Of a DNA stretch of 64,000 bases, positions 15,076 to 63,764 are shown piece after piece; within the stretch, counting starts at the first letter, position 1, and each line of letters opens with the position of its first letter. The notes under the pieces were generated by a model. It ran no database searches, was not told the DNA's origin, and saw nothing but the letters and a program-made list of their open reading frames with translations. The translations under genes were made by a program, and so were the position numbers. The stretch is from Taxawa tesnikishii (nom. ined.) (Eukaryota; Ascomycota; Dothideomycetes; Dothideales), in contig JAPDRO010000015.1 of assembly GCA_030247885.1 (NCBI GenBank), forward strand, positions 372,001 to 436,000, given 5' to 3'.

Positions 15076-18000
15076 ATGTTTTCCAGTGGAGGCAGCTCGA
15101 ATGACAAGACGAGGCAGTCTTCGGGAGGAAAGTCCTTCTTCGGTCGCAGGCATAGAGACAAAGGGAACAATGAAGGCCATCTGGCGCCGGAAACGCCCAC
15201 GATGCCTCCCAGTGCGGCGAACTCGCACTCGTCGCGTCATTCACACCGGAGCTCTATCTCTTCTCTCGACAGGTCGTCGACGCACAACCAGGATGGACCC
15301 GGGTTGGCTATGCAAGCTGGAGTAATCACATCCATACCTTACGACAGCGTCTCCCGCGACACCAGGACACCAATACACGTGGACCACCTACCCAAAGATG
15401 ACCGGCCTTCGTCAAGGAGAGAACCTTTGCCTCACCACTTAAATAAGGGCGGTACCGACTACCACCAATACCCTGCAGTTTCAGGGCCACCCCTCCACCG
15501 CACGGTTCTTCTTACCCGGCCAGTCAAAGAGGGGATTCCTACGATCATTCTGCGCCGTCTTTCAGCTCAGCCAGTGGATTCAACGGAGGCTCCAGCAACT
15601 CCTTTGCAACAGATTCCTCGCCTAACACTCGAGCTTCTTCCGATCAAGGCAGTATACGCTCGAATCATTCACACGGCAGGGCTTCTAGTATGTTTTCACC
15701 TGCGAGTCAATCTACCGCATCGTTCCCTCAGATAAACCTCGATTCTTCAACTTTACTACCACAACTAGCCCCATCGACTACACGGCAATCACAGAAGGAC
15801 CGGAATCTTTTAGGTGCCCATTCGCCGTCAGCATTTAGCTCCACCACCTCTTTCTCTCCGGACGGATTCGTATTACAGCGACCGGCTGATGACAGGATCA
15901 TCGAGAAGGAGTTTTTGGAGTTGATGCACAAACGCGGATGGAAGAGTCTACCAGAGCAAGCACGAAGACAGATGGAAGCGTATCCTATATCAAAAAAGTG
16001 GACCTTGGTACATCAGGATCGACTAGCGGAGTGGCAGGGGGAACAGAAGAGGAGGATGCACGCACGCCAGACAATCGGAAGCGGGGATGGGCTGGGGATC
16101 TTGGGTAGAGCGGATGAAGAGGGGAGTCCAGAGTGGTACGTTAGGAGGGTACTAGACAACTCGATTACCGCGAAGCAACTGCAAAGCTTGAGCGTCAGCT
16201 TGCGCACGCAACCGATCGGCTGGGTGAAAGCCTTCGTGGAAGCACAAGGTCAGGTGGCACTCACAAACGTGTTGGCAAAGATCAACAGAAAGCAGGGGAA
16301 CGGGCCTGCGCCAGCTCAAGGTTCCACAAGCGAACGGGACCTGGACCGCGAATATGACATTGTCAAATGTCTGAAGGCGCTCATGAACAACAAATACGGT
16401 GCAGACAACGCGCTCGCTCATTCGCAAATCATCATCGCGCTAGCTGCGTCTTTGACATCCCCGCGATTGAACACAAGGAAGCTAGTCAGCGAAGTCCTGA
16501 CATTCCTGTGCCATTGGGCTGAGGGACAGGGTCATCTGAAGGTACTCCAAGCGCTGGATCATCTGAAGACAGCCCAGGGTGAAAATGGCCGTTTCGATGC
16601 TTGGATGCGGATCGTTGAAGTCACCATTGATGGTCGCGGTAAAATGGGCAGTTTGGTTGGCGCAAGCGATGAAGTGCGCAGCGGAGGCATCGGCATGGAG
16701 AACTTGCTCATGGAATACGCGGTTACATCCCTCTTTTTGGTCAACATGATCGTGGATGCTCCAGAGAAGGACCTGCAGTTGCGATGCCATATCCGCGCAC
16801 AGTTTACGGCATGCGGTATCAAGCGCATCTTGACGAAGATGGAGCACTTCCAGTACGACCTCATCGACAAGCAGGTCGAAAGATACCGGGAAAACGAAGC
16901 CATCGACTACGAGGACCTTCTTGAACGGGAGAACAGCAGCATGGTTGATAGCATTGAGGCCGAAGCAAAAGATCTTAATGATCCCGCACAGATTGTCGAT
17001 GCCATTATGTCCAAGGTGCAAGGGAGCAGAGCAGCGGACTACTTCGTTTCGGCCATGCAACATATGCTGCTTATCCGGGAGAACGAAAGCGAAGACAGAC
17101 TGCGCATGTTCCAGCTGGTGGATGCCATGCTCAGCTATGTGGCCATGGACCGAAGGCTACCTGACATGGATCTCAAACAGAGTTTGAACTTCACGGTGCA
17201 GAGCTTGATGGACAAGCTCTACACCGACTCCGAAGCTCGTCAGGCTCGCGATGAGGCAATCGAGGCCCGCCAGATCGCCGACTCAGCTATGGCTGAGCGC
17301 GATGAGATGAAGGAGCAGGTTGCCCTAGGCGCTGACGGCTTGGTTGCAAAGCTGCAGAAGCAGCTCGCTGAACAGGCCGCGATCATTGACCTCCAAAATC
17401 GACAGAACGAAGCGTTCAAAGCTGAAATCGCTGAGCTTCAGCGCATACGTGCCCAGGAGCTCCAACGCAACGAACTTGAGACTAGAGAATTGTATCTCAT
17501 GCTTCGCGATGCTCAGGACATAGCATCTTCGGCCGCGAAGAAGGGTGGCAAGGACGTTGCGTCTGACCCAATGGCTATGCAAGGTATTCTCGACCGAGAC
17601 AAACTTATGGATCGCCTGGAGATGCAGCTGGAAAGAGCGAAGACACAGGCTAAGCTCGAGGGCAAGGTCTGGCAGCAGGTCAACCCATCAGACAAGCTTA
17701 GAGAGCTACGCGAGAAGATGGAAGGAGACTGGGGCAAGCAACAGGACTTCTCCTCGGATCGCTTCACGAATGGTTACCTTGGGACTGCTGCTCCCAGAGC
17801 CCGAAGTGCTATATCTCGCAAGCCCGTTGGTGGTCAGCTCAGAGATTACGATGGTGCTGATGGCGACATGCTTGAAGAAGACGACGAAGACGCTGTTTTC
17901 GAGAAGCCAAGGCTCGTGGAAATGAAGCGGCCCAAGATCAGCTCCGCACAGGCCAACGGTCTAATGAACGAGATTGTCTCGAAGACCAAGAGGTACGAAG

Positions 18001-20479
18001 GTAGCGATGACGAAGGTGACGGTATGACTACTGGACCGTCCCACCCAAGTGTGGACTCGGAATCGCCGAAGACACCCTCAGACGAAGAGTCTAAGTTTGG
18101 TGGTGCTCCTCCACCGCCCCCGCCACCCATGCCAGGATTTGCTGGAGGGCCTCCACCGCCTCCACCACCAATGCCCGGTGCCTTAGTGCCTGGTTTCTCA
18201 AACAACGCGCCCCCGCCACCTCCTCCGCCAATGCCTGGATTCAAAGCTGGTGGTGCACCTCCCCCACCTCCACCTCCAATGCCAGGGTTTTCTGGCGGTC
18301 CACCTCCGCCACCACCACCGCCTCCTGGATTCAAGGCTGGAGGACCGCCTCCTCCTCCACCCCCTCCAGGAGCTCCTCCATTGCCTGGTGCAAGGCGTGG
18401 GCCCGGATTTTTGCCTACTCCAGTCGCGCCTACGGCTCCTATTGGCTTTGCAGTCGCACGGCCTAAGAAGAAGCTCAAGGCTATTCACTGGGAGAAGATC
18501 GATTCTCCCGAGGTCACTCTGTGGGCTTCGCATGCGACGACACATGAAGAGAAAGAAGAGAAGTATGCCGAGCTCAGCAAGAAGGGTATTCTTGACGAGA
18601 TCGAGAAGCTCTTCATGGCGAAGGAGATCAAACAGATCGGCAAGAGCGGCGCCAAAAAGAGCGACAAGAAGCAGATCATGGCAAGCAATCTCATGCAGAC
18701 TTTCCAGATTTCGTTGGCCGTGTTCTCGCAAGTGCCCGTCGAAGACGTTGTGCGAATGATCATCCACTGCGACAAGGAAGTCATTGACAACAACGTTGTT
18801 ATGGAGTTTCTGCAAAGAGAAGATCTTTGTACCATTCCCGACAATACAGCCAAGCTCATGGCGCCTTATAGCAAGGACTGGACAGGGCCGAACGCGCTCA
18901 ATACAGCGAGAGAACAGGATCCCTCCGAGCTCACTCGTGAAGATCAAATCTTCCTCTTCACCGCCTTTGAGCTGCATCACTACTGGAAGGCCAGGATGCG
19001 CGCCCTGCAGCTTACTAGGACATATGAGGTTGAGTACGACGAGATCTCCACCAAGCTGAAGCAGGTCGTAGACGTGTCAGACTCGCTGCGCGATTCAGTC
19101 AAGCTGATGCCCGTCTTCGGTCTGATCCTCGACATCGGTAACTACATGAACGATTCGAACAAGCAAGCCATTGGTTTCAAGCTGAGCTCGCTCGCCCGTC
19201 TCGGTATGGTCAAGGACGACAAGAACGAGTCTACACTGATGGACTACGTCGAACGGGTTGTCCGGAAGCAGTATCCGCAGTACGAAGGCTTCATTGAGGA
19301 CATTGCTGGTGTTATGACCGCGCAGAAATTCAACATTGACCAGATCCAAGTTGATGCGAAGAAGTACATCGACAACATCAATAACGTACAGTCTTCGCTT
19401 GATTCCGGTAATCTGAGCGATCCAAGCAAGTTTCATCCTGAGGACAGGGTCAGCCAGGTTGTGCAGAGGTACATGAAGGAAGCCCGACGCAAAGCGGAGC
19501 AGATGCAACTGTATTTGGATAACATGAAGCGGACGTACGACGACATCCTCACTTTCTTCGGTGATGACAACCAGGACGAAAACGCGAGAAGAGAGTTCTT
19601 CTCTAAGCTTGCAAACTTCGTCTCTGAGTACAAGGCAAGCACCTTCTTTCCTCCCTCTCCTTATCACCTTACTAACACTAACTCCAGAAATCTCGCGAAA
19701 ACAACCTCACCAGGGAAGAAACCCAGCGCCGCAATGCAGCCTCAATGGCCCGCAAACAAGCTCCCGCCGGTCTCGCCAACGGCACATCCACCCCCTCTGA
19801 CGTAGGCCCACCGTCGCCTGCTTCTCAAGGCGCCATGGACACGCTCCTCGAGAAACTCCGCGCCGCAGCGCCCCAGACTCGCGACACACGCGACCGCCGC
19901 CGGCGCGCCCGCCTCAACGACCGCTACCAGAAACGCGTCGCCTCCGGCCAGAAGATGCCCGAAATCCCCGGCGTCGCAGACCCAACAGATGGCGGCAGCG
20001 GGAGCAGCCGGCTCACCCCACCGCCCGATTCTGCCGGCCTGTCAGTGGAAGGTCCCAACGACGATGGCAAGAAAGAAGGGGAAGGTGCGACGAGCGAGGG
20101 AGAGGATATTGCGGACCGTGCGGCGTCACTGCTGCAGGGCTTGCGAGGGGACGAGGGCGAGCCCGTCGTTCGGGACGAGAGCTTGCGCGTGCGACGGCGG
20201 AGGGAGAGCGCTGACGATGAGCGTGCAAGGAGGAGGAGACGCAGAGCTGCGCAAGGATCAAGTCGTGATGAGAACGCGCCGCAGAGCCCAATGCAGAGTC
20301 CCATTCCTGAGGAAGGACCCGAGGGTGGTGTGTTTAGCAAGAAAGAAGGCGACAGGAAACGCGAAGCTGCCGAGGATGAAGAGTTGACGTCGGGTTTGCC
20401 GAGTCCGCCTGTTACGGTGATTGTGCCGCCGAGTCCGACGACGAGTGAGAGGGGTGGGTTTTCGACGCCGCCGGAGTAG
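15076..20479 (+). CDS. sepA: Formin (SepA/Bni1 type) with GBD/FH3, FH1, FH2 and DAD
   Basis: The product is about 1783 residues. The N-terminus (KSFFGRRHRDK; AGVITSIPYDSV; EPLPHHLNKGG) matches Aspergillus SepA-type formins. A Rho-binding/FH3 region covers roughly residues 270-650, then a coiled coil, then an FH1 segment at 18100-18400 with about six PPPPPP(M)PGF-type units that bind profilin. The FH2 actin-nucleating domain follows (IHWEKID; ILDIGNYMND; GFKLSSL). A C-terminal DAD has MDTLLEKLR then an Arg-rich patch. It nucleates actin cables and rings for polarity and septation. Two features affect the model. The frame changes by one base near 15485-15495 in a CCCC run of the low-complexity N-terminus. 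Near the end, an intron at 19635-19687 has GC-AG ends; removing it joins SEYK to KSRENN in frame. Confidence 0.93.
18100..18400 (+). repeat. FH1 polyproline-encoding repeat inside the formin
   Basis: About six imperfect units of roughly 45 bases encode runs of six to nine Pro ending in MPGF or PPGF, separated by short Gly/Ala/Asn spacers. This is the profilin-binding FH1 domain. Copy number in such arrays varies easily between strains, and assembly can collapse it. Confidence 0.85.
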
Positions 20480-21539
20480 AAAAGGCCGTGTCTGGCTTCT
20501 GCAGCGCTTCGTTTTTGTATGGCCACACCGAGGGATGGTCATGGGTGGTGTGGGTTCTGTTTGGATACCTTTGCTGTACCTGATCGTACTGTTTTGGGCT
20601 TGAACCGGGTCTTTTGAGATCAAGGCTTCTTCTGGGGATTGCTTTTTCTTGTGGTCTTCTCCTCGACCCCTTACTCTGTTTACTGCATAGCGAGCGTCGG
20701 AGCGTTTGGGCGTCTCTTCTTCCGTGCGCTTCTGATCCTTTTTAAGGGCTACAATGCCGCGGGGTGCGATTTGCGATATCTGTCCCATTTTACTGAAGCA
20801 TTTCACCTGCATTCCGCCGTTTCGCGTTGTCTTGAATAACCCATAAGTCTAGAACGGTCCTCGGATACTGCTCAGAAGCACCCCTTCCGTCTTCGCAATA
20901 GGCAAATCCGGTTAGACTTTTTGTGTGATGTTCCGTTTCTTGAGCCACCTAACTTCCTTAATACTCGTCTGGTCTTTTACTTCTTTCTACTTTCCTCGTC
21001 TACTCTATCTCGCTCACTCCTTTCCCAATTGGACACGGGAGTGATCACAAACTGCCCCGACTGCCCCGACTAACCGGACTACTCCTTGGTTTACGTACCG
21101 GTGTTTTTCGGAAAGAAACTGGACAATGTCGTTTTGTCTTACCTCAATATTGCGATGAGACATGACATTTGGTGCAGTGAAGCTGAGTTGCCGTTTTCGG
21201 ACGGTAGGATGCCTAAGCTTCCTCGGGCTGAGATTCTGTTGGACGAACTGCTTTCCGCAGATGTCAACTCAACCTACAAAGGATACCGGATGGCTGTGCG
21301 CGGCTGCGCGGTTGCGCCACTGTTCGTTCGGGCGGTTTCAATCCGATCTTTGTCAGGCCTACCATCACAGTCAGCACACTATGGATAGCAGCTCTTACGG
21401 ATGAATCTGTATATATGGGACAGCAGTTCTGCTTGCTTAGATTTTCTTTTTGGAACAAGAATCGATCTCGACTACACAACCTCAGCAACATATCTCGTTC
21501 GTTGATCAACACGTTCCCACTACTCATCCACTAGCCACC
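20480..21539. other. Spacer of about 1 kb after the formin
   Basis: It holds the formin 3' flank and the 5' region of a possible small gene at 21540. No repeat, RNA gene or convincing frame is seen. Confidence 0.45.
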
Positions 21540-22609: not shown

Positions 22610-23221
22610 CTACAACTGCGTGCTTGCAGGAACGTAGGGATCAGCCTCCATCCTTGGCTGGAATGTCTGCAGGGGAGCAACCCGTATCGTCTTTGGAGAG
22701 ATTGCTATCGTCCGGCTCTGGTTCCTCCAAATCATCATCGACATCCTCATCTTCCTCTTCGTCAACTTCCCTTCCTTGCCCTCGGCCAGCTTCCGATACT
22801 TCCTGCGGGACTTCTTTGATTTGCTAGCCTTCTTTTTGCTCTTGATAGCAACCTTGAGTGCTGTCCTGCTTTCGCTGCCCTTCTCCAACTCCTCCAGTCT
22901 TTCTGACAGTATGCGTCTTGCAATCTTTCTGTTCTGTGTCCTGCTTCTCGTCTCTTGACATTTCACAACTACGCCAGTTGGTAGATGCTTCAATTGAACG
23001 GCAGAAGAAGTTTTGTTTATCTTTTGCCCACCTGGTCCAGTTCCTTTGAGAAAGGCTTCGGTGATGTCGTTCTCGTTAATTGTAGGCCGTGGAGGAAGCG
23101 GATGTTTGGATGATACCGGTATTGTGGTTGACAATGATCGGTATGAGACTCTGACTGACAACACCCGGTACGCGCTCGCAGTAGATGCACAGCGCATAAG
23201 CGATAACGCCCGGTCCGCCAT
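22610..23221 (-). CDS. Mitochondrial RF1-domain protein (Rso55/MTRFR-like) with GGQ motif
   Basis: From the ATG at 23221 the product opens with a basic, Ser-rich mitochondrial presequence. The class I release-factor catalytic domain follows, with GTGPGGQKINKTSSAVQL carrying the GGQ motif that hydrolyses peptidyl-tRNA. A Lys/Arg-rich C-terminus (KSKKKASKSKKSRRKYRKL) binds the ribosome, as in the codon-independent rescue factors Rso55 (yeast) and MTRFR. It lacks codon-recognition domains, so it should rescue stalled mitoribosomes. After residue about 160 the printed frame gives an odd Met-rich tail ending at 22610. A one-base shift at GGG (22769-22771) instead gives an acidic tail (EVDEEEDEDVDDD) ending at about 22645-22655, which looks more natural. 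Confidence 0.82.
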   Translation of the reverse strand: MADRALSLMRCASTASAYRVLSVRVSYRSLSTTIPVSSKHPLPPRPTINENDITEAFLKGTGPGGQKINKTSSAVQLKHLPTGVVVKCQETRSRTQNRKIARRILSERLEELEKGSESRTALKVAIKSKKKASKSKKSRRKYRKLAEGKEGKLTKRKMRMSMMIWRNQSRTIAISPKTIRVAPLQTFQPRMEADPYVPASTQL

Positions 23222-24239: not shown

Positions 24240-26128
24240 TCAAATCAGGACATCCCGTAGACCTAGAGAGTCTGTTTCAGTCCTTCCAAGCTCGTAGCTC
24301 AAAATTGAGTGATCTTGATACATGAGTAGCAGTCTCCACCGCTTCTGCTCGTCTGGCAAAGCTTCTGTGCCCTGCACGGGAGCAACAGCGATTCCATGAA
24401 GAGGTCTCATTGGTCTGTGGCCTGCCAACTCCTGGTTGCGGCGTGGGAGGATATGATCCAGTCTGAAGGCATAAACGTTCTTCGCATCCTTTGATTCGGT
24501 AGGTTGGCGCCACTGTGAACGAGTCTGTGCCAAAGTCAAAATCAACACGCGACCCTTCTGACTAGCGGCAATGACCACGCCTAAGGAGGGTATCTGTGCG
24601 AGCATGTTGTAGCGTTCAAGGTGGTCCAGAGGTTGGTAATTGTAAGGCAGTTGCTGAGCCAGAGCGTCTGCGAGGAGTATCACGGGCTTTTGCTCATCCA
24701 ATCTGTCCCCGACTGACGGTTGCCAGAGAAAGATCTTGGTTTTGGCGGCGTACAGGATTGGACATGGGAGATTCCCGCATATTGCGTTAGCTGCGTGTAC
24801 CTTGATGCGGACCGACAAATCGAGTCTCCGTCGGAGGCCCTCTTCAACTGGGTCGTAAGCTTCCTCTTCCAAGTCGTCAGAATCATCCTCTGCCTCGGCA
24901 GTTTCGCCCAGTCCGAAACCATCATCTACCTCCCCAGCAACGTCCCCTTCGTCGTCCTCCTCCTGTGGCGCCTGAGGTGAAACAGTTGGTGCACCCCTTC
25001 ATGGAGCTGCATAAGAGCAGGGGCGTGAGAGAACATCGAAGGCAGCGGCAGCGGCGATGGATTATCAAAGTTGCCATCCATAACATTCGTTGGCCCACCA
25101 TCAGCAGTCCGTCTGTGGATTGGGCCATTTTCAGGCAAGTCGTCTGTTGCAGAACTGATGTCCCAGATGCCTTCATTTGTACCGTAGGATTTAGGATCGA
25201 CACCGGTCGCTTCATGTGCATTTACTACTTTCCGGAAGGAACGTATGTCAAGAAACATAACGGCCCATCCTGAGTTGAAGTGATCATAGCCATAAGTATC
25301 CATAGTGCTTTGGCTGGAGCGGGTCTGGATTATCTGGTTGATGCGAAGATTGTGGACATCCCAAGCTGTTGTAGTGCCAGATATATCTGCTGCTAGAAGC
25401 CAGCGCCCCTCAGGATCATCTCCGGTGTTGCAGAATGCGATATGTGGGATGTTGCTCTCTCCGTTGTTCAGTATACGTACTTCGTCGTCGACTCTTCTAA
25501 TGAATTTTGATCCTTCGTCAACGCGTACTTCACCTCTGGCTATGCTCGCCAATTCAGCTTCTTCGACAGAGTCAGAATGGCAAACCTTCCAATCTCCAAA
25601 CATGCTGTCGGCTGACTCGTCTACAACAGTGTCCCGATCGTCCTTAAATTCTTGATCAAGGCCAAAAGCAAACACGAACACATTGTGGCTGTTAGCACTC
25701 ACTGCGATCATGCGAGCTTCTGTGTGTATTGCCAAGCCCCATGCACTAGAGCGTACATTCTGGTGAAAGAACGGCTTGAGCTCAACAGCCTCGGCGCCGA
25801 GCGTACTGCCGGGTTCGTTGCGCCTCTTGATGGCCTCATAGACATGCTGTATCCGATAGGCCTCAACATCGCCGTCGTCCCGGACGACGGCCACTACCTC
25901 GTCCGTGCCAAGGAACTGTACGAGAAGACTGTTGATGGCTCGCGGTTCCCGAGGATCGATGTAACCGCCACGCTCGGGATGGAGTGCATATGATTGAATG
26001 ATGAGTACGGGCCGTGGTGCAAGCTCCTGGGTAGGGAACTGCGGTTCCGAGACAAAGATTTTGTCCGCATACGCTACAAAGTAGAAATTGTGAGTGTACG
26101 ACAGCCCTGTCTTGAGATCATTGGTCAT
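24240..26128 (-). CDS. CRT10: CRT10-family regulator of ribonucleotide reductase genes
   Basis: The N-terminal part matches the CRT10 family: NFYFVAYADKIFVSEPQFP, GYIDPREPRAIN, LGTDEVVAVVRDDGDVEAY and SAWGLAIHTEARMIAVSANSHNVFVF, with beta-propeller character. The C-terminal part (KVHAANAICGN; ERYNMLAQIPSLGVVIAASQKGRVLILTL; HGIAVAPVQG; YQDHSILSYELG) belongs to the same family but lies in another frame. The two join naturally if one G is removed from the GGGG run read at 24997-24994, which gives an acidic linker. Yeast Crt10 represses RNR2/RNR3 transcription and is tied to the Rtt101-Mms22 ubiquitin ligase. The 5' end is uncertain: family alignment suggests a little coding sequence upstream of the ATG at 26128. 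Confidence 0.78.
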
Positions 26129-26228
26129 GGTTCAGCCCGGCCTGTTGTGTGCCTGCACGCACCAGGTTACATCGCCACATGCACTGCGAGACATCAGTTA
26201 CAGAACCGGCTGCTGCGGCACTGTGGTC

Positions 26229-28326: not shown

Positions 28327-28370
28327 ACTATAAAACGAGGTCCTGTTAAGGTTCCGTAGCTCTGAAGATC

Positions 28371-33220: not shown

Positions 33221-34486
33221 ATGCCTGCGACCGCCTACGGCAATTTTCACGTACGCGCACAACTACACACCACGCGCCAGTGTGGTGCGACGATGGAGAC
33301 GGTACTGATCCCATCATAGGACTTTTGTCGTGACAGCGGAGACCGTCACTCAACCCTGCCCATCTGCAATGTACGTATCGTGCCCAGCGACAGCCACCAC
33401 GCCCACCACGAGTCTCGACCCGGATTCACTAATAATTCGCTTAACAGCTCTTCAACGAATCGCCTTCAAGACTCGGAAATGCAGCTGGTTTCGGAGGATG
33501 CGACCTGACTGGAATACCGCTAAGTGGGGGAAGGCGTTTGGCGAACTTGGGTTAGTACAGAAGGAATCGCGCTCGACGATTGAGCTTGACAGGAAACAGG
33601 ATCCATAATCGTTGATGGCATTGCAATTCTGACCATGCTGTACCTGCTGTGGAGGTCGAACAGGAAGCGGGCAGCCGTTGGTAGAAGGTTGGTCTTGCCC
33701 ACCGGACACGATGACAGCTTGAGCTGACAAGACATCCAGGGAGATGCAGATATTCTTGCTCTCGTACATCATCATTTCTATCTGCGAGATCTTCACTATT
33801 GGCGGATTTCCACTCGACGGCGCAGTCAGAAGAGTAAGCGAAATCGTGGGCACAATTCCGAGCCACGTTTCTGATGCTTTTACAGGCTTTCACAGCAGTG
33901 CACATCGCAGCAATCATCGCATCCGCTTGGATTCTCATGATGAACGGCGCAGTCGGCTATCAGCTACTGGACGACGGTACACCCTCTCTCTCGCCTTGGT
34001 CTTCGGTTCTGCGGCCATTCTCTTCATTGGTACCGGCTACATCGCCCTCGACACTGGATTTAGCTGGACTGGATACTGGAATTCGACCCTCGACGCCCCG
34101 AACAAAGCGTACGCCCTGTACACCCTGTACCAACTGGTGCCCATGATCTTCCTGGTCGTCTTCTTTCTTCTGGAAACCGTCCTTGTCTTGCGCGTACTTG
34201 GCGAGCGGAGGCCAATGCGTACGTGGTTTTGTTCTTGTTGCACCTCTTGTTCCCGGACTGACGTTTTCCAGTCTACCTCATCGCTGCTGCACTTCTCTTC
34301 ATCATCGGCCAGATTTTTCAATACGTCATCAGCGTACACTTGTGCACATCGACAAACGGCGCCATCAACGGCGGCCTCTTCGAAACGCTCTTCACCTTCT
34401 TGTCCGTGGTTATGATCTGGGCTTTCTGGTCCAGCATCACGGAGGACGACTGGCCGATGCCGCCAACTACAGACACGTACGATTAG
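33221..34486 (+). CDS. CHS7: Chs7-family chitin synthase export chaperone
   Basis: Seven exons fit: 33221-33250, 33320-33370, 33448-33550, 33600-33687, 33740-33833, 33886-34218 and 34272-34486. They give 304 residues if one C is restored in the CCC run at 33982-33984 (DDGTP|LSLALVFGS). All borders are GT-AG. The N-terminus has the family's conserved Cys pattern (FCRDSG...LPICN) and seven membrane helices follow. Conserved points include MLYLLWRSNRKRAAVGRREM after helix 1, MNGAVGYQLLDDGT in helix 3 and MIWAFWSSITEDDWP near the end. Chs7 is an ER membrane chaperone needed for export of chitin synthase III to the cell surface. The in-frame TAG at 34484 is followed by more coding-like sequence, described separately. 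Confidence 0.85.
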
Positions 34487-43643: not shown

Positions 43644-44868
43644 ATGGCAGAAGGAGGGGCTACTACTGCTACCCCAGCAAGTACCGGAATCAAGAGGAAG
43701 AGAATGCCGGAATCCAAATTCTATGCAGTCCGCCTGGGACACACACCAGGTATCTACCACTCTTGGCCGGATTGCCTGGACCAAGTGAGAGGTTTCAAGG
43801 GAGCTGTTTGTAAGAGTGGACTGAGTGTATGCTATTGTACGATTGCTAACGCTCTGCCTTGAAGTCAAATCCTTCCCCTCTCTCTGACGCTGAGAAGTAC
43901 ATGAAGGGCGACACCATCTCAAACGGTAAATCGAGAAGCGCGCCACAGAAATACTATGCCGTACAGAGCGGACGAGTTCCAGGAGTGTATACAGACTGGT
44001 CAAGTGCACAGGCACAAATCGACGGTTGGACAAAACCGAGACACAAGGCGTTCACGACGCGGGCGGAGGCAGAGTTGTTCGTCCGCGAGGGTACATGGGA
44101 TTCTACGCCTGCCGATAAGAATGGAGCGACCAAACCACCGGCAAAGAAGCAGAAGAAGAAGGGAGGAAAGGAGGACAGTGTAGCACTAGCGGAAGAAGAT
44201 GTGGAATACGAGCCTGGTGAGGGTCCACTGCCATCGGATGCCGAGGATGGCTTTGACCCGCGTATCTTACTTGACCCTACTACTGGCAAAGCAGTGTGGA
44301 AATCCGAGGAGCACCTCAACGCCACGAAATGGCAGGCGACTGGCTCATCAGACGAGACAGGTGTCCTCCGCATCTACACAGACGGAAGCTCTTTAGGCAA
44401 CGGCGGTATGGGTGCCACGGCAGGCGTAGGTGTCTACTTCGGCCCTAGAGACTCACGAAACCTGTCCGAGCCGCTCACCGGTCCGCGGCAGACGAACCAG
44501 CGTGCGGAATTGACAGCAATCTTGAGGGCACTCGAACTCTCTCCCGCGACAGAAGAATCCTGATATGCACCGACTCAAATTACTCTATCAAGTGTGTGAC
44601 GGAATGGTATCTGAGGTGGCGCGACAATGGCTGGCTCAATGCCTCGAAGAAGCCCGTGGAGAACAAGGATCTGATTGAGAAGATCGTTTTGGAAATAGAG
44701 GAGAGGGATCAGATTGCTGGACTCGAGTCACGAGATCCTAGGGGGCATAACATGGTCAAGTTTCAATGGGTGAAGGGACATAAGGATGACGAAGGAAACA
44801 TCGCTGCGGACCGGCTGGCAGTTCAGGGAGCGCAGGATGCAAGACAACTGTTCAATGCCACTCAATGA
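43644..44868 (+). CDS. Ribonuclease H1 with two hybrid-binding domains
   Basis: Exon 1 is 43644-43809 and exon 2 is 43865-44868. Two hybrid-binding domains open the protein (KFYAVRLGHTPGIYHSW; KYYAVQSGRVPGVYTDWSS). A Lys-rich linker follows (KKQKKKGGK), then the RNase H fold with RIYTDGSSLGNG, RQTNQRAELTAIL and ILICTDSNYSIKC supplying the catalytic Asp-Glu-Asp, and WVKGHKDDEGN near the end. It cleaves the RNA of RNA:DNA hybrids in the nucleus and perhaps mitochondria. Two frame breaks interrupt it: one at 43875-43886 (CCCCTCTCTCT, one base too many or a TC unit too few) and one at CCC 43543+1000 (44543-44545), where one more C restores LSPRDRRILICTD. With both restored it is a complete enzyme of about 390 residues. 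Confidence 0.88.
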
Positions 44869-48473: not shown

Positions 48474-50070
48474 ATGGCCGAGGAAGCGGTAGAGTTGAAG
48501 AACAAGGGCAACGAGGCGTTCAAGAAGGGTGACTGGGCTACTGCTGTCGAGTGTTACACGAAGGCTATAGAGAAGAACCCTAATGAACCTTCCTTCTACA
48601 CAAACAGAGCGCAGGTGAGTACTGTTCCCGAGTCTTCCAACCTGCTTATGTACTGACCCAAGGAATTTAGGCGAACATCAAACTCGAGGCATACGGTTTC
48701 GCGGTCGCCGACGCAACAAAAGCAATTGAAGTGGACTCCAACTTTGTAAAGGCCTACTACCGGAGGGCGGTCGCAAACACCGCCATTCTGAAGCACGCCG
48801 ATGCTATCCATGACTGGAAGATTGTCGTCAAGAAGCAGCCGAACGACAAGGTTGCAAAGGCGCAATTTGATGCATGCAACAAGTTGGTCAAGCGGGACGC
48901 CTTCCTCAAGGCTATTGAGGTTGCAGATGCTCCTTCTGCCGCCGAGGGTCTTGATCTGGAAAACATGCCTCTGGAGCAAGGATACGACGGTGTGGAGCTT
49001 GGGGACAAGATGACGCAGCAATTCATTGATGACATGATTGAGAGGTTCAGGGATGGGAAAAAATTGCGAAGAAGTACCTCTTCAAGATCATCCTGGCAGT
49101 GAAGGATATCGTATACCAAGAGCCAACGATGGTGGAGACGCAGGTCGCGAAGGGACACAAGATTACCGTCTGCGGTGACACTCACGGTCAATACTTCGAT
49201 CTTTTGAACATCTTCAAGTTGAACGGTTTCCCGTCGGAAACGCACTCTTACCTCTTCAACGGCGACTTCGTCGACAGAGGAAGCTGGTCTACGGAGATCG
49301 TCACCCTGCTCTACGCCTACAAGTGGTTGTTCCCTAACTCTTTCTTCTTGAACCGCGGAAACCATGAGACGGACGACATGAACAGGATGTACGGTTTCGA
49401 GGGTGAGTGCAAAGCCAAGTACAACGAGCGTGTCTTCAAACTCTTCTCTGAATCTTTCTCGGCGCTTCCGCTGGCTACCCTTATCGGAGAGAAGTACTTC
49501 GTCCTCCACGGCGGTTTGTTCTCGGACGACGATATCACTCTGGACGACGTAAGGAAACTGAACAGGCACAACCAGAGGCAGCCAGGTCAGAGCGGTCTGA
49601 TGATGGAGATGCTCTGGACGGATCCCCAACCCATGCCAGGCAGAGGTCCCAGCAAGCGTGGTGTTGGTCTGCAGTTTGGTCCAGATGTCACGAAGCGTTT
49701 TTGTGAGAGGAACGGACTTGAGGCTATCATCCGTAGTCACGAAGTCAGGATGGAGGGATATGAAGGTGAGCTTCGCGCCCTTGCTGACAATTCAACTGCA
49801 TCAGAGAACCGTACTAATTCTTGTGTTAGTCGAACATGACGGAAAGTGCATTACTGTCTTCAGCGCACCCAAGTATTGCGACAGCACGGAAAACAAGGGT
49901 GCCTATATCAACATCGAGTCCGACCTCAAGTTGCAGTTCCACAAGTTCGACGCTGTGCCTCACCCCCTATCAAGCCCATGGTAAGCCGTGCCCATACATC
50001 ATATCGCCGTCAAGCAACGCTAATACTGTGACAGGCTTACGCCAACAACGGCCTGATGGGTATGATGTAA
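48474..50070 (+). CDS. PPT1: Serine/threonine phosphatase PP5 with TPR domain
   Basis: Exons 48474-48614, 48671-49765, 49830-49980 and 50035-50070. Three TPR motifs (KNKGNEAFKKGDWATAVECY; NIKLEAYGFAVADATKAI; YYRRAVANTAILKHADAI) bind Hsp90. The phosphatase domain shows the metal-site motifs GDTHGQYFDL, NGDFVDRGSWS and RGNHETDDMN, and the later WTDPQP, RSHEV and FSAPKYCDS. The protein ends NNGLMGMM, as in other PP5 enzymes. It acts in cytosol and nucleus on Hsp90 clients. Two one-base gaps break the frame: at the A6 run 49058-49063 (KK|IAKKYLF needs A7) and at the C5 run 49963-49967 (PHPPIKPM needs C6). With both restored the protein is about 478 residues. Confidence 0.93.
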
Positions 50071-52117: not shown

Positions 52118-55100
52118 TCATTTCTTCTTGTTCCTCGCGCGCTCCGCCCTGCGCCTCGCATTATACTCATCCTTCTTCCTCCTGTCCCTCTGCGCCGGTG
52201 TCTCCTCCGGCGGCTCCGGCTTAGCCTCGGCCGGGCCAGCATCCGCCATCTCGCTGCTGCTCGCGCTCCTCGTCTTGGCCCTATTGTTAGCAGGAGTGGC
52301 CTTGGCCTTCACAGCGGCAACCCTGCTCTTAGCGACAGTGGTAAGTGGTTGTGACTTTCTGCCCTCTTCCTCGCTCGGCCCGCCGTTAGTCTGAAGGTGC
52401 AGATCAGCGAGGGTCTCCTCGTCCATATCGCTTAACGGCTCCGACATGGCGCGCATTAGTTCTTCGCCTGTCCAGCGCTCGTCGTGTACTGTTGTGCCAG
52501 AGACGTCGTACGCTTCGAGGTACCAGGGGACGCCACCACTGGCCCAAGGGTCGTCGATCGGGGACGCTGTCGGAGCGGTTTAGCTTCGTTTGGGATGCTT
52601 CTCTGTGGAGAATCTTTACTGTCGCCCTGCGCTGGGGGCTCGGACGTTGACTGCGTGGGATTGGCGGTGGTGTGAGCAGCACTGGACGTCGAGATCGGTG
52701 GTGACAAGGGCTCGGTAGGCTTGTCGGTGAAAGACGTGATAGATACGCTGTGCGTCGAGGATGCGTAGCTCGCTGGCTTGTCAGGTGGTTGTGGAGTCGG
52801 ATGAGACGCAACATCCGTATCAGAATGTTTGATGTGGACAGGTGCCTCTTTCAGAGCGGGATCAAGGAGCAGTTTATCGTCCGCTAGTGGTTCCGCATCG
52901 CGCATGGTGATGTCTTCACTTGCAATGCTGTTCTTCGGACTAGGAGTGGCACCACCAACAGCAGATACGGAGAGATCTAGCTTGCAACTCGACTCGCCAT
53001 TGTTGGCTGTGATGGAGGACAGCCGGCGTGACTGTACCGAGTTCTCCAGTCTAAGGTCAAGGTCAGCCCAAGTGGCCTGCTCCTTCTCGTAAGGAATGCC
53101 TTTCAGGTCCGCTTCCGCTTTCCATGCCGGCTGAAGAAGCTCGAGGCAGGCTTTGACAACGCGTTTTGCCACGCTCTTGACCTTCTTTTGCTGTTCATCG
53201 AGAGACAGATGCTCTTGCGTTCCAGCTCCATACTCATTGAGCCGAGCCCATATTTGCATCAGGTCGTAGACATCAGCACGATGGTGGCTGGGGACGGATC
53301 TTGAAAGCACGTCGGAGACGACCGCTGCCAGGTCCTGGGAAAACGCGGTAACTGAAGTATAGAAGCGCCGCGACAGCCTCTCTTCAATGTCATTCAACCC
53401 AGCCGTGAAGTATTTATCCTTATCGTCGCGCCTGCAGTTTGTTAGTCTACGTGTCGCCTTGAATTCCATCACAACATAAGGTCTGACTTACTTCTGCGCA
53501 GTTTGTAATACCGATAACAACATGGGGTGAATAGGGAAGTAGATCGTGTCGACCAATTCTTTCATAATCTCCACATCGTGGAGCTTCAACTGCTCCCTCT
53601 GGCGGATATGAGTAGCAAGAGCTGTCAAGCGTGTGATGTCCTCACTAAGCAGCTCAGCGAACTCGATCCTTCTGAGCAGCCGTGGTCTTCCTGCTGCGCC
53701 CATGCCAGCAAAGTTTCTCCGCGTGATCTCCATGGATGAAAACGACTCCAGTTGCAGCTGAAGACGCTTCAACAACGCAGCGCCACGTCTGGCTTCCCGC
53801 TTCAGCGTCCAGTACTTGCAAGCTTCGGCTACAAACTCTTTTCTTTTCCGTAATGTGAAGCGCATGAGCGAAGCGTCGACCGTGTTGAAAACAGCCGCGG
53901 GCACAACCGGCGCACCTGAGGGCAGTCTCCAGCCGGTCTTCTGGGGCTGCGAACGCTTGCGCTTGGTACCACCTACTACAATGTTACTGCTGTCATCTGC
54001 CGGGCCCAGCTCGTCTGAGGCATCAGCTGCATTAGCTGGTTGAAGATGATTGGCAGTCAGGGCAGCGGCTTGACTATCTGCCCACTTCCGATCCCGCATT
54101 GTGTGCCGGTAATAGCGTTTAGCATCCGCGACGGCATTATCGACATCATGCTCACGCCGCCAATCCGGAGGAACATGCCGATCGCAGAAAGCTTTCAGCA
54201 CGGAGGCGTCGATACTGCTGGTATGAGTTGACTTCATCTTGAGAAAGAGACGCGCACGGCGGGCGCAAGTGACGTGGAAGGCTTGGTAGCAGGCCTTGTT
54301 TCCGCATTGTATGCAAGCACCCATTTTCTGGTTGCAGATGTAGCAGTTCTGTTGTCCATTGTCAGTAACCCTCCACATGCCACACGCACTACTCGAGGTG
54401 AGTACTCACAAGACTCCAACGGCTTCTTGGGACTTTATCAACGTCCTGGATAGGCTCCATGAACGTTGGATTGGCGATCGTTACTTCAGGTATCCAGATG
54501 GCACAGAGAAGATGTGACCAGCGCAGGGTGTTTGTCTGCTTGAAAGCACCATCGACATTGGGGCAGAAGATACAAGTCTAGGCAGATGTGTTAGTGGATG
54601 ACCAAAGAAGCATGCATCAAGCCAGGACCTACCGGTGTTCCTCGGCCAATCTCTTTGCATTTGCGGCAGAACCACTGCCCTTCGGGTATGAAGGGAACAC
54701 CATAGCATTCTTGGTGAACAGCAAGATCACACCCATCACAGAAGATGATGGCATTCGCATTCTCACAATCACCATCGTCGCAGATGGCGCACTTGGAATC
54801 CGGCTCGTCTCCAGGCGCTGTTGGCTCGCCATTCACGGCAGCCGCCGAACTGGATCGTGGCCTGTGCGTTTGAGGGTGCCGTGGATTTGGCTTGGGAATT
54901 CCTAAGCTAGATTAGCCAACTCCAAGCCCCACCTCGATGATCGACACTTACTCTTTTCCAACGCATGATATTCCTTCTCAATCTGTGTCATAGTAATTTC
55001 GAAGATGGCTGGTTTGATTGCTTCAGCTTGTTCCTCTTTGCGATGCGCATTATGCGCTTCGAGCCATTTTTCGTCTTGCTCGTCCATGTCATATTCAACT

Positions 55101-56157
55101 CTGCCCACCGCTGGCGCTGGCTGATTTGGTGGCTTCTGATCCGACTCCAAGACCAAACCCGCTTCGCCCTCATCTTCATATGGTCCTTCCACATGACGTA
55201 TAAGAGTATCTCTTGGAATCTCGAAGCGGTCGCTTTCCTGGTAGCCGACGTTGGCCATGGACTTGTCCACGAAATTTACCTGGACAGCAGGATCGCGCTC
55301 ATAGGAGGAAAAGGTGTCCACGATTCTGAGTGACGGTTTTGGCAAATTGAGGCGCTCCTTGGGGTTGTGAGTTGGCAGTGGCACGATGCGAGGTGCTGGT
55401 GGCGAGCCGAGACCACTCAACATTGATTCCGGACGTCGTGGCGGTCTTCCTGGCTTTCTCTTGGGTGTAGCTGCTGTAACATTTTCTTGCGATAGTCCTG
55501 GTTGAGCTAATCCGGGAACAAGACTGGATACGCTCAGACCCACAGGTTCGCTCTCCTCTATGCTGCTGCCGTTCGTTGTGGCCTGCTTGAGAAGAGGGGC
55601 TTCACCCCATTCTTTCCTCTTCCATCCACTTCGTCGGTGGTGAAGACCATCAGCTCAGAGCCTATATCCAGATCCGGATGAAACTCCTCCCAGCTTCTCT
55701 CTTCTCTTGGTTTATAACCATCGCTTGCCTGACTCGCAGCAGCGGCTGCCGCGGCACTGCTGTACCGGGGCCTCGGTGTTGCCGCTGGTCTTCCAGTACG
55801 TCTTCCTTCCCTCTCCCGATCTCTCCTTGGTCGCGCAGTTCGTACTGTCTTTGGGCTGACTTCTTTGTCATCAGGCAAGACCAGTATAGGGGCTGCGACT
55901 TCCTCATCGTCATCTCCTCTGCTCTTTGGAGCGGGAGTCTCATACATGATCTCGTCCGACTCTTTTGACTCCTTAGACTCCGGCTGTATGTCGTTTCCGT
56001 CCGCATCAACCCATCGACCTCCACCACCGGGCCCACCGGGGACGTACTTGCGACGTTTGGGTGGAGGGCCGGAGTCCGCGTTGGGGTTGGACGGGGTGAT
56101 GCGTGGCCGGGCGGGCGTGCGCGTAGGTCGGCGCGCCGAGCTGGGAGGGGCTGCCAT
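52118..56157 (-). CDS. NTO1: NTO1-type PHD finger protein, NuA3 histone acetyltransferase subunit
   Basis: Five exons: 56157-54952, 54901-54633, 54577-54410, 54348-53492 and 53431-52118; all borders are GT-AG and in phase. A basic, Pro-rich N-terminus leads to the conserved block [24 protein letters not shown] finger follows ([18 protein letters not shown]), then a zinc knuckle ([26 protein letters not shown]) and an extended PHD finger ([14 protein letters not shown]). This is the BRPF/Nto1 layout that reads histone H3 tails in chromatin. The end carries [16 protein letters not shown] and [10 protein letters not shown]. The frame breaks twice, each fixed by one added base: the TTT (A3) run at 55613-55615 and the GGGG (C4) run at 52560-52563. 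Length about 1270 residues. Confidence 0.9.
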
Positions 56158-58103: not shown

Positions 58104-59206
58104 CTCGTTTGGAGAGTTCGGCAAAGGAAGCGACATGGGGATGCTAGGCCGCGAGCGATAGTTGCTTTTCAGGGAAAGTAGCACAGATCTTGAGGATGAG
58201 ATCTACGGTTAGATCTCCGAGACGGATCAGCGACAGGGATCGCGCATTAGGTGATAGTGAAGATCGAGGCTAACGCTAGCCAATGCCATGCATTTCCAGC
58301 CTCCATTTTTGGGGGCGTAGTCTTCCTGTCTTCGGTGGTTATTACAGACATGCTCTCTCGGTAGACACTGGAAACCCAGCGCGCATCCGTCTAAGCAACG
58401 CCTCATGATCTTCATCACCCTCGGGGTGCAAGTCCAGATGGATGAGATATCTGCAGACGGGGCTCATGACGTCTGTGGTGTCTTACGATGTCGGCAGTCC
58501 AGACAACGGCTGGGAGGCTTGCAGACGGTGCGAGCACTAGTGGGGGCACGGTCAGCAGGACCTAATCTTCTGCAAACCTCTACAGGCGCGGGAAGGCAGA
58601 CGCTCCTCATTCGGCAGGCACGATCCTCGGGGAGCCGACGGAGTCGAGGTTTAAACCTGCAAGGGTAGGATGGATGTTTCAATTCTGTAAGAGAAGCTTG
58701 ATCAGATAAGTTTAGAATCGAACAGAGATGGCCAGCGCGGCAATAATGATGAAAGCACGCGTTCATGATGCCCCTCCATCTCTACACGTACAATACAGAC
58801 TTTCAGCCGTTCGGTTTGTCTTACAGTGAAACGAACGGCTCGACAACGCAGAAACGAGTGTGTACACCACACCATCCACATTGCAGCCAACCTCCCGATC
58901 AACGAGCGGCAACTAGGCTAGACCATCCGTCCAGACCCTGTCATTGTCATGCATTGAAGTGGCCGAAGACATGGCGGCAACTTATTCGTTGGTGCGTCCC
59001 CTTCTTCCCTAGTCTATGTGTAGCATCCACGTCGTCATCTACTCCCGGTCGAGCTCAAATACCATTGATACCTGACGCGCCGGCCTCGCTGGTCGCGTTT
59101 CCTCAGCTCCTGATCTGCGCTACCTATTCATGCACATGAGGATCCTCGTGAAACGACATTACTAACGCGCTCCGAGTACCCCTCTGGTCCGTCAAGTCTG
59201 CGAGAC
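58104..59206. other. Spacer of 1.1 kb
   Basis: 3' flank of the cystinosin gene and promoter of the RGS-LOV gene. No coding signal, repeat or RNA gene is seen. Confidence 0.5.
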
Positions 59207-61598
59207 ATGGACCGTTCCTCGTCCAGACTCAATGACCGGCCAATGCCAACTTCGGTCGACACGTCCGCGAGGATGCCCAGGATCGTCACTGAACAGAGCC
59301 CAGGTTCTGCGGTTGGAGAGCCTCTGGTTCACGACTTCCAGATGCACTACAACCATGTCCCGCCCAATAAGCGCTCTCCGACACCCCAATCACCACACGA
59401 TCTACCGGCAGCAATGTCCTTCAGCACCCCGGAGCTCGATGGCGACCAAGCTCCTCCGCCGCCCGACTTTGCCAAACGACGCGCTCACGCCAATAGAAAG
59501 AGCCTGGAAGTCAGACATCAAGCTGCTCCCCGGATCGCAACACAACAAGCTAACAGCAATCTGCCCCGACATGCCCTCGCAAGGGAGCGGCAGCAAAGCT
59601 CATCAACCGCTTCAGTGAACACTACGCTGGGACCTGGTGAGCGAAGCTCTGAAGAATCGGTCTTCTCGCAAGAGACGACGGCGACATCCATACAAACGCT
59701 TCCGCCTCTCCAGACGAAGGGACCACCAGACGAGACAGATCAGCTCGAGCCGGTTCTGGAGGATGACCCGAAGAACTTTGACCTTGTCACCGCGCCGCCT
59801 GAAGAAACCACCGGACTGTATCAGCTGGAGAAGCGCGCAGAACAGCTTTTGTCCAGTGAGCATCTGCGATTGATATTTTCGGATCCCCAATTGCTGCTGA
59901 ATTTCACTGGATTCCTGAGTGCTTTCCGTTCACAGAGCATCTCGACTTTAATCTACTACCTGGACGCACTGAAGGCGCTTCGAGCCATCGAGTATGCAAA
60001 TGCGATTGCTGAAGCTCTTGAGCCCATACCAGGACTCGACTTTACTTCGCAAAGTCCGAGAATCACACAGAATCCGGCACTGCAGGAGAAGGCCGATCGC
60101 GCGTTTGATATGCTCGTTCGTGAGGACCTTCCTGCATACATCGCGCATGTCTGGATCCAGGTTGTGAGCGTCAGTATTCAGAGGCGGATAACGGGTACTC
60201 TTGCGCCGCACCTGCGAGAAGCTTCCGAGGGTTTGGCTGAGGTCTTCTGCCTGAGTGATCCTTCCAGACCTGACAATCCTATCGTCTTCGCGTCAGAAGG
60301 TGATGAGATCTGAGCACTGTGCTATTTGAGCGTGGGTTGACGTTTGGCAGAGTTCCACCGCACAACTCAGTATGGCATGAACTACGCCATAGGTCGGAAC
60401 TGCCGCTTCTTACAAGGACCACGCACCAACCCCAACTCAGTTCGCCGGCTAGCGGAAGCTGTCAGAGCAGGCAAAGAAACCACTGAGGTTTTCGTGAACT
60501 ACCGACGCGATGGATCGCCCTTCATGAATCTGTTAATGATAGCACCATTGATGGACTCCAGGGGCACCATTCGCTATTTCATCGGCGCGCAAACGGACGT
60601 TTCTGGGCTACTGAAAAATTGCACGGATCTGGAAGCTCTACAGAATCTGGTCGAACGTGCTGAGAACCCAGTACTTGCTGCGGCGGAGGACGAAGAAAAC
60701 CACAAGGACGAACTCCAGGCTCTGACCGAGATGTTCAACGCAACCGAGTTGGATACCGTCCGCAAGTTTGGCGGCAGCATGCATAGGGAGCACGCAGACG
60801 AGAGCGACCGTGAGAGCATCGCTTCGCATCGTCCACGGCTCGTTCTCAAGGATCGTGGCACCGAAGTGGTAGAGCAAGCCCGGTCAAGAGAGGAGTTGAA
60901 TCCGGACGGCAGCGTTCGCTTGAACGGCAGACTGCCAGGTGTCTACCAAAACGTACGTTTCGACCATACAGCCACCATCGTGCAGCATCGAAAAGCTGAC
61001 TTGATAACAGTATCTCCTCGTTCGCCCCGCGCCCTCCCTCCGTATCCTCTTCACATCGCCCTCCCTTCGCGTCCCTGGAATCCTACAATCACCTTTCCTG
61101 TCCCGTATCGGTGGCTCCTCACGCGTCCGTAAGGACCTCGAGCAGGCGCTTGGGGAAGGCCGCGGCGTCACCGCGAAGATCCGGTGGCTCACTAGGCCGG
61201 ACGAAGAAGGAGAAGGAGAAGGCCGGAGCAGATGGATCCATTGCACGCCTTTGCTCGGACACAGCGGCGCAGTAGGCGTGTGGATGGTGGTCCTGGTCGA
61301 CGAGGAAGGCGAACGAGAAACAAAGAGGAGGTTCCGCGCTGCACCGCCCATCGCGAACACAATTGGCGGGAAGGAGTATGTTGGCAGGATTGTTAGAGAC
61401 AAGGCCTACCGCCACATACCAACAGCGAACACGCCCAGTACGGGATCGTACGATGGTGCTGGCGGATACTTCGCTGGGCAAGCACCCGCCCCGAAGAAGT
61501 CTCAGCTTGCGGGTGTGCAGGATGCGACGGCGAGGCCCAGCAGTGTTCTTAGTGGGAAAATCGCCCCACAGAGTGAGCTGTCCTTTGCATTGAAATGA
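59207..61598 (+). CDS. RGS-LOV blue-light receptor (BcLOV4-like)
   Basis: Exons 59207-60299, 60351-60952 and 61011-61598 join in phase and give 760 residues. A disordered Ser/Pro-rich N-terminus (1-190) precedes an RGS-like domain at about 205-340 (QLEKRAEQLLSSEHLRLIF; LLNFTGFLSAFRSQSISTLI). The LOV domain follows at about 350-465: GRNCRFLQGP holds the Cys that bonds flavin, NYRRDGSPFMNLL the flavin-binding residues and YFIGAQTDVSGL the signalling Gln. After a linker the C-terminal block YLLVRPAPSLRILFTSPSLR begins a conserved tail. In Botrytis BcLOV4, blue light frees an amphipathic helix next to the LOV domain and drives binding to anionic plasma-membrane lipids. A link from light to G-protein signalling is likely but not shown here. 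The frame is intact. Confidence 0.9.
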
Positions 61599-62886
61599 GG
61601 CTCAACAAGAAGAGGAGGAATTAGTGCACAACGAACAGACAGATTTTGGACGACCTAAGGCTTTCAGGCGGGCAGAGAAGCTCCTCGGTGGCCTGCGCAT
61701 GGTTTGCTCGGGTGTTTTTGCTGTGTATGAGGAAAGGTTGGGCAATGCCTTGCCCTCTTTGCTCACGTTTGTCAATCGTCGACTCCTAGCGATGGCGTCC
61801 GTTCGAGGCCATGCATGTAAAGTGGCGAAGCTGGAGGATGTGCATAGTATGATATATGAATATACCCTAATGCATGGAAGCGTCTGTATATGACTTTTGC
61901 TTAGTATCAATGCACGGGTTTGCTCTACTTCTGGTGTTGTTACGACAGTAGAGTGGGAGGTTTCTGAATCTGAGGCTTGGCGAGTCAACAAGTCAGGCCT
62001 CTCGGCTCCCTCTCCTCACGTCTCCTCACCTCACCCTTGCTATCTTTGCTGCTCCAACTGTTGTTAGCCGCTGTCACGGCTCCACCGCAATGGCCTGCAC
62101 GGAATCTGGCTTGCAACACACCGGTCAGGGACTGTTTTACCTCGGTTGATCCGCTCGTCAGAAGAGCCGGGCTGCTTGCAACCAACCAGAATAGCCGCCG
62201 AAGATTTCGACGCGCCAGGGCAAGCAAACAAACACACAGGAATAGGCCGAAACAGGCGCGTCGCCCACGATTGTCATCTTCGCTAACCCACATGACGTCC
62301 AACGTGGTAGGCGCCGGCGGCCGGCAGACCACTGAAACGGTCATGGTTGATTTTCGACCTCTGCTCTGACGAAGCGCGCAATGGATGCTGCTTGCACAGT
62401 CTCAGCCTTACGGCAGGTGGCACACAGAAATAGAAAACGACCGAGGTCGCATCGCACTAGCAGACAAAATGGCTGCTTGTTTCATGTGTCGCATCGTGTT
62501 CGACTGGTCGGGCCCGTATTGACAGACCAGCCGTTCCTGCTTCCGTCTGTGGAAAGAGGCCCTGGGAAAGGTCTATAAGACTCTCCAGGCCGCCATCAGG
62601 TGGCCTCGGGCTTTGTTTTCGCTGTCAGGCTCTTTTCACACTATCCCATTCTCAATCCCTTCTTCCTGTTTTCTTGTGTTCTTTCCTTGAGTCCCTCCTT
62701 CCAATCTGGTCATTGGGGTTTCGTCTGTCTTCTTGACGCCCTTAATCGTTAATCTACCTTCTTTTGTCTTCGGCTGAACCCCGATCTTGCATGAGCTATC
62801 CGTCCTATACTAGTCTTCTACATTCAATCCTTGAACTTTCCGTCTGCTGTTAAAGTATACACGACCGTTACGAAATAACGACTGAA
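61599..62886. other. Spacer of 1.3 kb
   Basis: The last 250 bases form a pyrimidine-rich leader before the Myb-like gene. A minus-strand frame at 61985-62344 is open for 119 codons but has no intron signals or recognisable content. Confidence 0.45.
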
Positions 62887-63764
62887 ATGCCAAAAGAACA
62901 GAAGGCCCCTGCTACCATGCACCGTGTGTCACCCATGGCGAGCAATTCTAGGCAAGCGCCTGCCACCGAACACCAGCCATCAACCCAGCGCAACGCTGCA
63001 GTCTGGAACGCCACAGATGATGAGACCCTTCTTTCAGCGAGAGCGTCTGGTCTCAACTGGCAGCCGATAGCGGTAAAGTACTTCCCCACCAAGACGGCGA
63101 ATGCATGCCGAAAACGGCACGAAAGACTTATGGAGCGCCGCAACGTTGAGGATTGGGATGGAGAAAAGCTCGAGCGGCTTGCCAGAGAGTATATGGAGTG
63201 CAGGAAGGAGATGTGGAGCATCCTTGCCGCTAGACTCGGAGAGCGATGGGCAGTCATTGAAGCCAAGGTAATTCCTTCGATAGGACGTCTAGAGTAGCAA
63301 TCGCTAACGCCCGCACAGTGCATGCAAAGGGGTCTCAAAACCTTCAGACCGCCGCACGCGCCGCACAGAAAAGGGCCACCGCGGACGAGGGCCGACCTGA
63401 GCGAGGTAATGAAGACCACAACTCGGACAGCGGCATCGGTTGTTCGGACGCTGAGATGGAGGCAGGCGATGCCAGCGGCCCCTCCTCTGCGGGACCACGA
63501 CTGCGACCACTTCAGCCCCTCATCCATGAGCAACAGCAACCGACTCAGAACGTACCGTCGCCCCTCAACCTGCCTCTGTACCAACCTCCGGTGCAGCAGT
63601 GGATGCGAGCACAGATGGCGCCAGGTCCTCCGCCAGAGCCTCCGTACAACGCTGTGCGTTCTCGGCGCGAACGAGAGCAGCACAGCCACTCGCCCACCCA
63701 TAGCCAGCGTGGATCAATCAGTATCCAATCTATGCTGTCGCCTGCTGAGGTTTCGCACGCTTGA
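62887..63764 (+). CDS. Myb/SANT-like DNA-binding protein
   Basis: Exons 62887-63267 and 63319-63764 are separated by a GTAATT...ACAG intron in phase 0. The first exon carries two Myb-like repeats: WNATDDETLLSARASGLNW... CRKRHERLM, then WDGEKLERLAREYMECRKEM...GERWAVIEAK. After the intron the reading is CMQRGLK, then a one-base gap in the AAAA run at 63337-63340. With A5 it continues NLQTAARAAQKRATADEG and the acidic SDSGIGCSDAEME, which is a common tail in this fungal family. It ends in a Pro/Gln/Ser-rich region (HSPTHSQRGSISIQSM). A nuclear transcription factor role is likely; targets are unknown. Confidence 0.72.

What the first reader, a model, noticed from the sequence alone, without database searches (positions are those of the whole stretch)
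15076..63764. Recurrent one-base frame breaks at homopolymers in conserved genes
Formin (15487 area), Rso55-like (22770), CRT10 (24995), CHS7 (33983), RNase H1 (43878 and 44544), PP5 (49060 and 49965), NTO1 (52561 and 55614) and the Myb-like gene (63338) each have conserved protein sequence that jumps frame at a run of three to six identical bases or, once, a TC run. Most breaks look like one missing base. Six further, less certain, breaks follow the same pattern (21694, 22348, 27969, 29064, 46437, 50595). Such a pattern across unrelated essential genes fits assembly error from long reads or pyrosequencing better than gene death. Genes with no break (for example RGS-LOV, PFK-2, NCS1) show the rest of the sequence is sound.
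Basis: partly seen in the sequence, partly recalled or inferred. Interest (0 to 1): 0.8.

Follow-up and report, generated by a model that had tools for sequence, protein, structure and literature searches.

The report
Assembly errors mimic broken fungal genes
The broken reading frames in this fungal genome are almost certainly sequencing-assembly mistakes, one letter dropped from short runs of the same letter, and not damaged genes; it is an ordinary quality problem, but anyone using these gene predictions should know of it.

Summary
The frame breaks are in the printed sequence, but they are best read as an assembly artefact that affects the whole genome. Of 11 sites listed as sure, 5 are firm (CHS7, RNase H1 twice, PP5 twice), 5 are plausible by reading frames, and 1 (Myb-like) found no homology support. 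The six 'less certain' sites stay unresolved. Elsewhere in the same 29.4 Mb, 34-contig genome, Pfam matches give 13 more breaks with no room for an intron, among them MCM4, RPC2 and CCT5, essential in yeast (recalled) and apparently single-copy here. All 13 step the frame the same way, as if one base were missing, and 15 of 17 placed single-base breaks lie at printed runs of three or more identical bases. The run-length spectrum has a cliff: C/G runs fall from 145 (length 5) to 4 (length 6), while A/T runs fall from 173 to 34. This fits a long-read-only consensus that undercalls homopolymers, a known problem in fungal assemblies. Real gene death, a mismatch-repair mutator, tiny introns and programmed -1 frameshifting all fit worse. 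Interest is low.

The parts
33981..33987 (+). CHS7-like gene: overlap of two Chs7 profile pieces in different frames
   Evidence: profile 113-148 then 147-224, D = -1; frames shown
43866..43900 (+). RNase H1 N-terminal domain: frame change at a TC run after an intron (two-base step)
   Evidence: Cauli_VI match stops at profile 34 of 44; sequence, read by eye
44536..44539 (+). RNase H1 catalytic domain: frame change
   Evidence: RNase_H profile 5-56 then 56-140 in another frame, D = -1
49057..49072 (+). PP5: frame change at a homopolymer
   Evidence: PPP5 profile 2-71 then 67-93, D = -1; also called ab initio at 49055; gene named by PDB match
49955..49985 (+). PP5 C-terminus: frame change at a homopolymer before the last intron
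   Evidence: sequence, read by eye against the recalled PP5 C-terminus
52550..52570 (-). NTO1-like gene: plausible frame change
   Evidence: frames; ab initio call at 52558; no profile spans it
55600..55625 (-). NTO1-like gene upstream of the EPL1 match: plausible frame change
   Evidence: frames; the EPL1 match begins downstream, at profile position 79
24985..25005 (-). CRT10-like gene: plausible frame change
   Evidence: frames; CRT10 pieces 112-281 and 563-656 lie on either side in two frames, but no profile spans the site
22760..22780 (-). Rso55-like (RF-1 domain) gene: plausible frame change in the tail
   Evidence: frames; RF-1 profile match 6-106 of 116 ends just upstream
15480..15495 (+). 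formin N-terminal region: plausible frame change in low-complexity sequence
   Evidence: frames; the three formin domains found lie downstream in one open frame

Best explanation
The window comes from a long-read-only (most likely nanopore-type) fungal assembly whose consensus drops one base from a small share of homopolymers. Runs of five or six identical bases, C and G above all, are printed one base short. Where that happens inside an exon, the conserved protein appears to jump frame. The living gene is intact. Shown here: the frame jumps, their single direction, their homopolymer setting, their presence on many contigs and in genes essential in yeast, and the depleted run-length spectrum. 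Inferred: the sequencing platform, and that the reads hold the longer runs.
For: Direction: one search compared neighbouring Pfam matches (same strand, at most 600 bases apart, profile overlap at most 40) in 239 rows (122,598 nt): 82 pairs. Sixty-eight have D >= 46, intron-sized, with frame steps 0/1/2 in 22/24/22; 14 have D < 46, of which 12 change frame, all with step 2 and D = -1 modulo 3, six of them exactly -1, and 2 are same-frame similarity gaps (recounted). A row dropped from that count gave a 13th break with the same step, in a class I tRNA synthetase. Genes hit: RPC2, MCM4, Arp3, CCT5, a PP1-type phosphatase with two breaks. Copy number: 6 MCM loci, one split; 3 Rpb2-type loci, one split; 9 Cpn60/CCT genes plus one divergent match; the other loci were not named one by one. 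Homopolymers: 15 of 17 placed single-base breaks lie at printed runs >= 3, against 2.9% of coding bases in runs >= 4; binomial P about 1e-21. Spectrum over 255,444 unique bases: C/G runs 836, 145, 4 at lengths 4, 5, 6; A/T runs 873, 173, 34; Fisher P = 1.6e-5 for 5 versus 6. Genome-wide there are 747 exact C/G 6-runs against about 2,900 if the 4-to-5 ratio continued. [quoted passage not shown]
Against: No reads, second assembly or RNA could be consulted. Two of 17 placed breaks sit at runs of only two bases (MCM4 and an actin-like gene on C11), and one further window break is a two-base step at a TC run. In the Drechmeria passages, errors were more often overlong runs, unlike here, so the error profile is not identical. 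The break position within each gene was read by eye from frames, partly against recalled protein motifs. No second fungal genome was available as a yardstick for the run-length cliff, so a natural scarcity of C/G runs of six is not formally excluded; a few longer C/G runs do exist (7 of length 7-15).
Confidence: 0.96

Rival explanations
1. Real mutations: the genes are dead or dying, or the strain is a mismatch-repair mutator that gains homopolymer indels.
For: Homopolymers are the natural sites of slippage in mismatch-repair mutants (recalled).
Against: MCM4, RPC2 and CCT5 are essential in yeast (recalled) and the family searches show no sign of a second copy. All 13 genome-wide breaks go one way. 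Six MutS-family loci show no frame break in the matched part of their ATPase domain, and the two split ones are split by intron-sized gaps (only that domain was examined). Mutation does not explain a sharp C/G run-length cliff.
Confidence: 0.02
2. Programmed -1 ribosomal frameshifting or transcriptional slippage at homopolymers, so that the printed gene is real and is decoded across the break.
For: All 13 breaks outside the window and the 4 placed single-base breaks in it have the -1 sense, and most lie at runs; decoding can slip at such runs in other systems (recalled).
Against: The runs involve all four bases. Only 4 of 16 runs start at the codon position of a canonical slippery heptamer (the heptamer rule is recalled). 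They fall at arbitrary points in unrelated genes. The depletion of C/G 6-runs is also present outside long ORFs (3 where about 14 would be expected, by subtracting one search counts counts; approximate, since this remainder includes short exons).
Confidence: 0.01
3. Unrecognised introns explain the frame changes.
For: The genes do have many introns; 68 of 82 neighbouring pairs have intron-sized gaps. The ab initio frameshift call at 8676 is explained by a GT..AG intron.
Against: At 6 of the 12 pairs the two profile pieces leave -1 base, so there is no room for an intron; the other 6 differ from that by multiples of three and stay below intron size.
Confidence: 0.01

Closest known systems
Homopolymer-length consensus errors of long-read-only assemblies (nanopore-type)
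   Same: Single-base indels at short homopolymers, spread over genes of all kinds, producing false frameshifts; described for ascomycete fungi in PMC7500977 (passages) and PMC9453082 (passages).
   Different: Here all placed breaks are shortfalls; the Drechmeria study reports more overlong runs. The rate here looks milder than that of its initial assemblies, where fewer than one-sixth of test genes were full-length: 13 breaks in about 123 kb of matched sequence, a lower bound.
Programmed -1 ribosomal frameshifting
   Same: Sense of the frame step.
   Different: No shared slippery heptamer phase, no fixed place in the gene, unrelated genes.

Membership tests
long-read homopolymer consensus error | single-base indels located at homopolymers | tested here: met
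   15 of 17 placed single-base breaks at printed runs >= 3
long-read homopolymer consensus error | breaks spread genome-wide, regardless of gene function | tested here: met
   13 breaks on contigs C1, C3, C4, C7, C11, C14 and C31
long-read homopolymer consensus error | deficit of longer homopolymers in the assembly | tested here: met
   C/G runs 145 at length 5, 4 at length 6 in 255,444 bases; 747 6-runs genome-wide; no second fungal genome as yardstick
long-read homopolymer consensus error | contiguity of a long-read assembly | tested here: met
   29,367,862 bases in 34 contigs, largest seen 2.83 Mb
long-read homopolymer consensus error | raw reads or a second technology give the other length | not testable with these tools
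   no reads held
programmed -1 frameshifting | slippery heptamer in fixed phase with the zero frame | tested here: not met
   run starts at codon position 3 in 4 of 16 sites
pseudogenes or mutator strain | breaks tolerated, not in essential sole-copy genes | tested here: not met
   MCM4, RPC2, CCT5; essentiality recalled from yeast, sole copy inferred from the family searches
pseudogenes or mutator strain | loss of a mismatch-repair gene | tested here: inconclusive
   MutS ATPase domain without frame breaks at 6 loci; the rest of these genes and the MutL genes were not examined

The most novel reading that the evidence does not exclude
A fungus in which homopolymers really are one base short in hundreds or thousands of genes, essential ones included, and in which pervasive -1 slippage during transcription or translation restores the proteins.
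Probability: 0.01. Interest if true: 0.95.

Novelty: not a real feature. Interest (0 to 1): 0.08.

Why it matters
It is a caution: gene models, counts of pseudogenes, absence calls and enzyme catalogues from this assembly will be wrong for a sizeable minority of genes. At 13 breaks per 123 kb of matched sequence, a 1.5 kb coding sequence has about a 15% chance of carrying one (inference, lower bound). Completeness scores based on similarity can miss this kind of error, as PMC7500977 reports (passages).

Tried and rejected
An ab initio codon-statistics Viterbi with frameshift states covered only 31% of the window as coding. At its looser setting it made 6 frameshift calls. Two agree with the finding (49055, 52558). 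Two look false on inspection: 8676 is explained by a GT..AG intron, and 61181, the only opposite-direction call, lies where one frame reads on coherently, by eye, in a PAS-domain gene. One (25782) abuts the predicted end of a gene and one (20395) was not resolved (no Pfam match over its cut-off). I did not use this method for counts.

Paper searches to identify the organism by assembly size found nothing usable. I considered that the window might be a locally bad region. The genome-wide breaks argue against that, but I did not compare error density rigorously, because the window genes were chosen for having breaks.

Rows dropped: one search used 239 of the 251 rows of its eight Pfam searches. 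It left out 11 kinase rows on contig C2, none of them within 600 bases of another, and one PF00133 row nested in a longer match; that last row was followed up and added a break of the same sense. Pairs more than 600 bases apart, or with profile overlap above 40, were not scored. The 8 MutS rows came later and hold no break.

Full report
What is there. The window is part of contig C7 of a 29,367,862-base, 34-contig genome. In three window genes, Pfam profile pieces continue one another in a different frame with an overlap that leaves minus one base between them: CHS7, RNase H and PP5 (D worked by hand). A second PP5 site and a TC-run site in RNase H1 are firm by reading the frames (sequence). 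Rso55-like, CRT10, NTO1 (twice) and formin are plausible and step the same way. The Myb-like site has no homology support.

How general it is. I searched eight Pfam families in the whole genome and compared neighbouring matches in a gene: the nucleotide gap minus three times the profile gap (239 of 251 rows). Of 82 pairs, 68 have a surplus of 46 bases or more, as introns do, and their frame steps are spread evenly (22, 24, 22). Fourteen have less. Two of these are same-frame gaps in similarity. The other 12 change frame, all in the same sense, and six have a surplus of exactly -1. A thirteenth, found in a row first left out, has the same sense. The genes include RPC2, MCM4, Arp3, CCT5 and a PP1-type phosphatase with two breaks (the best PDB matches are called only serine/threonine-protein phosphatase, the next ones PP1). 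The searches show no sign of second copies of three of these: six MCM loci, of which one, MCM4, is split; three Rpb2-type loci, of which one, RPC2, is split; nine Cpn60/CCT genes plus one divergent match. The other loci were not named one by one. That MCM4, RPC2 and CCT5 are essential is recalled from yeast.

Where the breaks lie. For 17 single-base breaks (13 outside the window, 4 in it) I located the frame change by eye (PP5 and RNase H). Fifteen lie at a printed run of three or more identical bases. Only 2.9% of coding bases in a sample of long ORFs lie in runs of four or more, so random loss would almost never give this. The two exceptions lie at runs of two. Sixteen of the 17 have one clear run; they involve all four bases (G 6, C 5, A 3, T 2), and only 4 of the 16 have the codon phase of a canonical -1 slippery heptamer. 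Eleven of the 16 start at codon position 1, against 47 of 108 runs of five in the ORF sample, a mild excess that I do not explain.

Run lengths. In 255,444 unique bases held, C/G runs number 836, 145 and 4 at lengths 4, 5 and 6, and A/T runs 873, 173 and 34. Genome-wide there are 747 C/G runs of exactly six, about a quarter of the 2,900 expected if the ratio of fours to fives continued. Seven longer C/G runs do exist in the held sequence (lengths 7-15). A cliff like this is what a consensus that undercalls homopolymers would leave behind, and it shows outside long ORFs too (3 runs of six where about 14 would be expected). I had no second fungal genome as a yardstick.

Reading. The simplest account is a long-read-only assembly with residual homopolymer undercalling. 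[quoted passage not shown] the same passages say that PacBio-only fungal assemblies do not share the problem). A second study inspected homopolymer indels in three genes of ascomycete nanopore assemblies at various depths (PMC9453082, passages seen). The Drechmeria authors saw more overlong runs, whereas here every placed break is a shortfall, so the processing probably differed. The platform itself is inferred.

Rivals. Gene death or a mutator strain does not account for broken essential genes without a second copy; six MutS-family loci show no break in the ATPase domain, the only part examined. Introns do not fit into minus one base. Programmed frameshifting lacks a motif, a phase and a fixed place, and would not deplete long runs outside genes.

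Noticed in passing
G000 contig C2, for example C2:413883, 810272, 878577; 446460 and 965342; 636786 and 1091433; 91522 and 543198: Kinase-family matches recur on this one contig in pairs or a triplet with the same length and profile range, mostly on both strands, which suggests a repeated element or segmental duplication.
   Followed up: no
window 7448-8800, minus strand: Lipoyl and E3-binding domain matches suggest a dihydrolipoamide acyltransferase (E2)-type gene; an apparent frame break near 8676 is explained by an intron.
   Followed up: yes
window 60359-61330, plus strand: Gene with a PAS_9 match at its start; by eye one frame reads on through 61181, where the ab initio model had called an opposite-direction shift.
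   Followed up: partly
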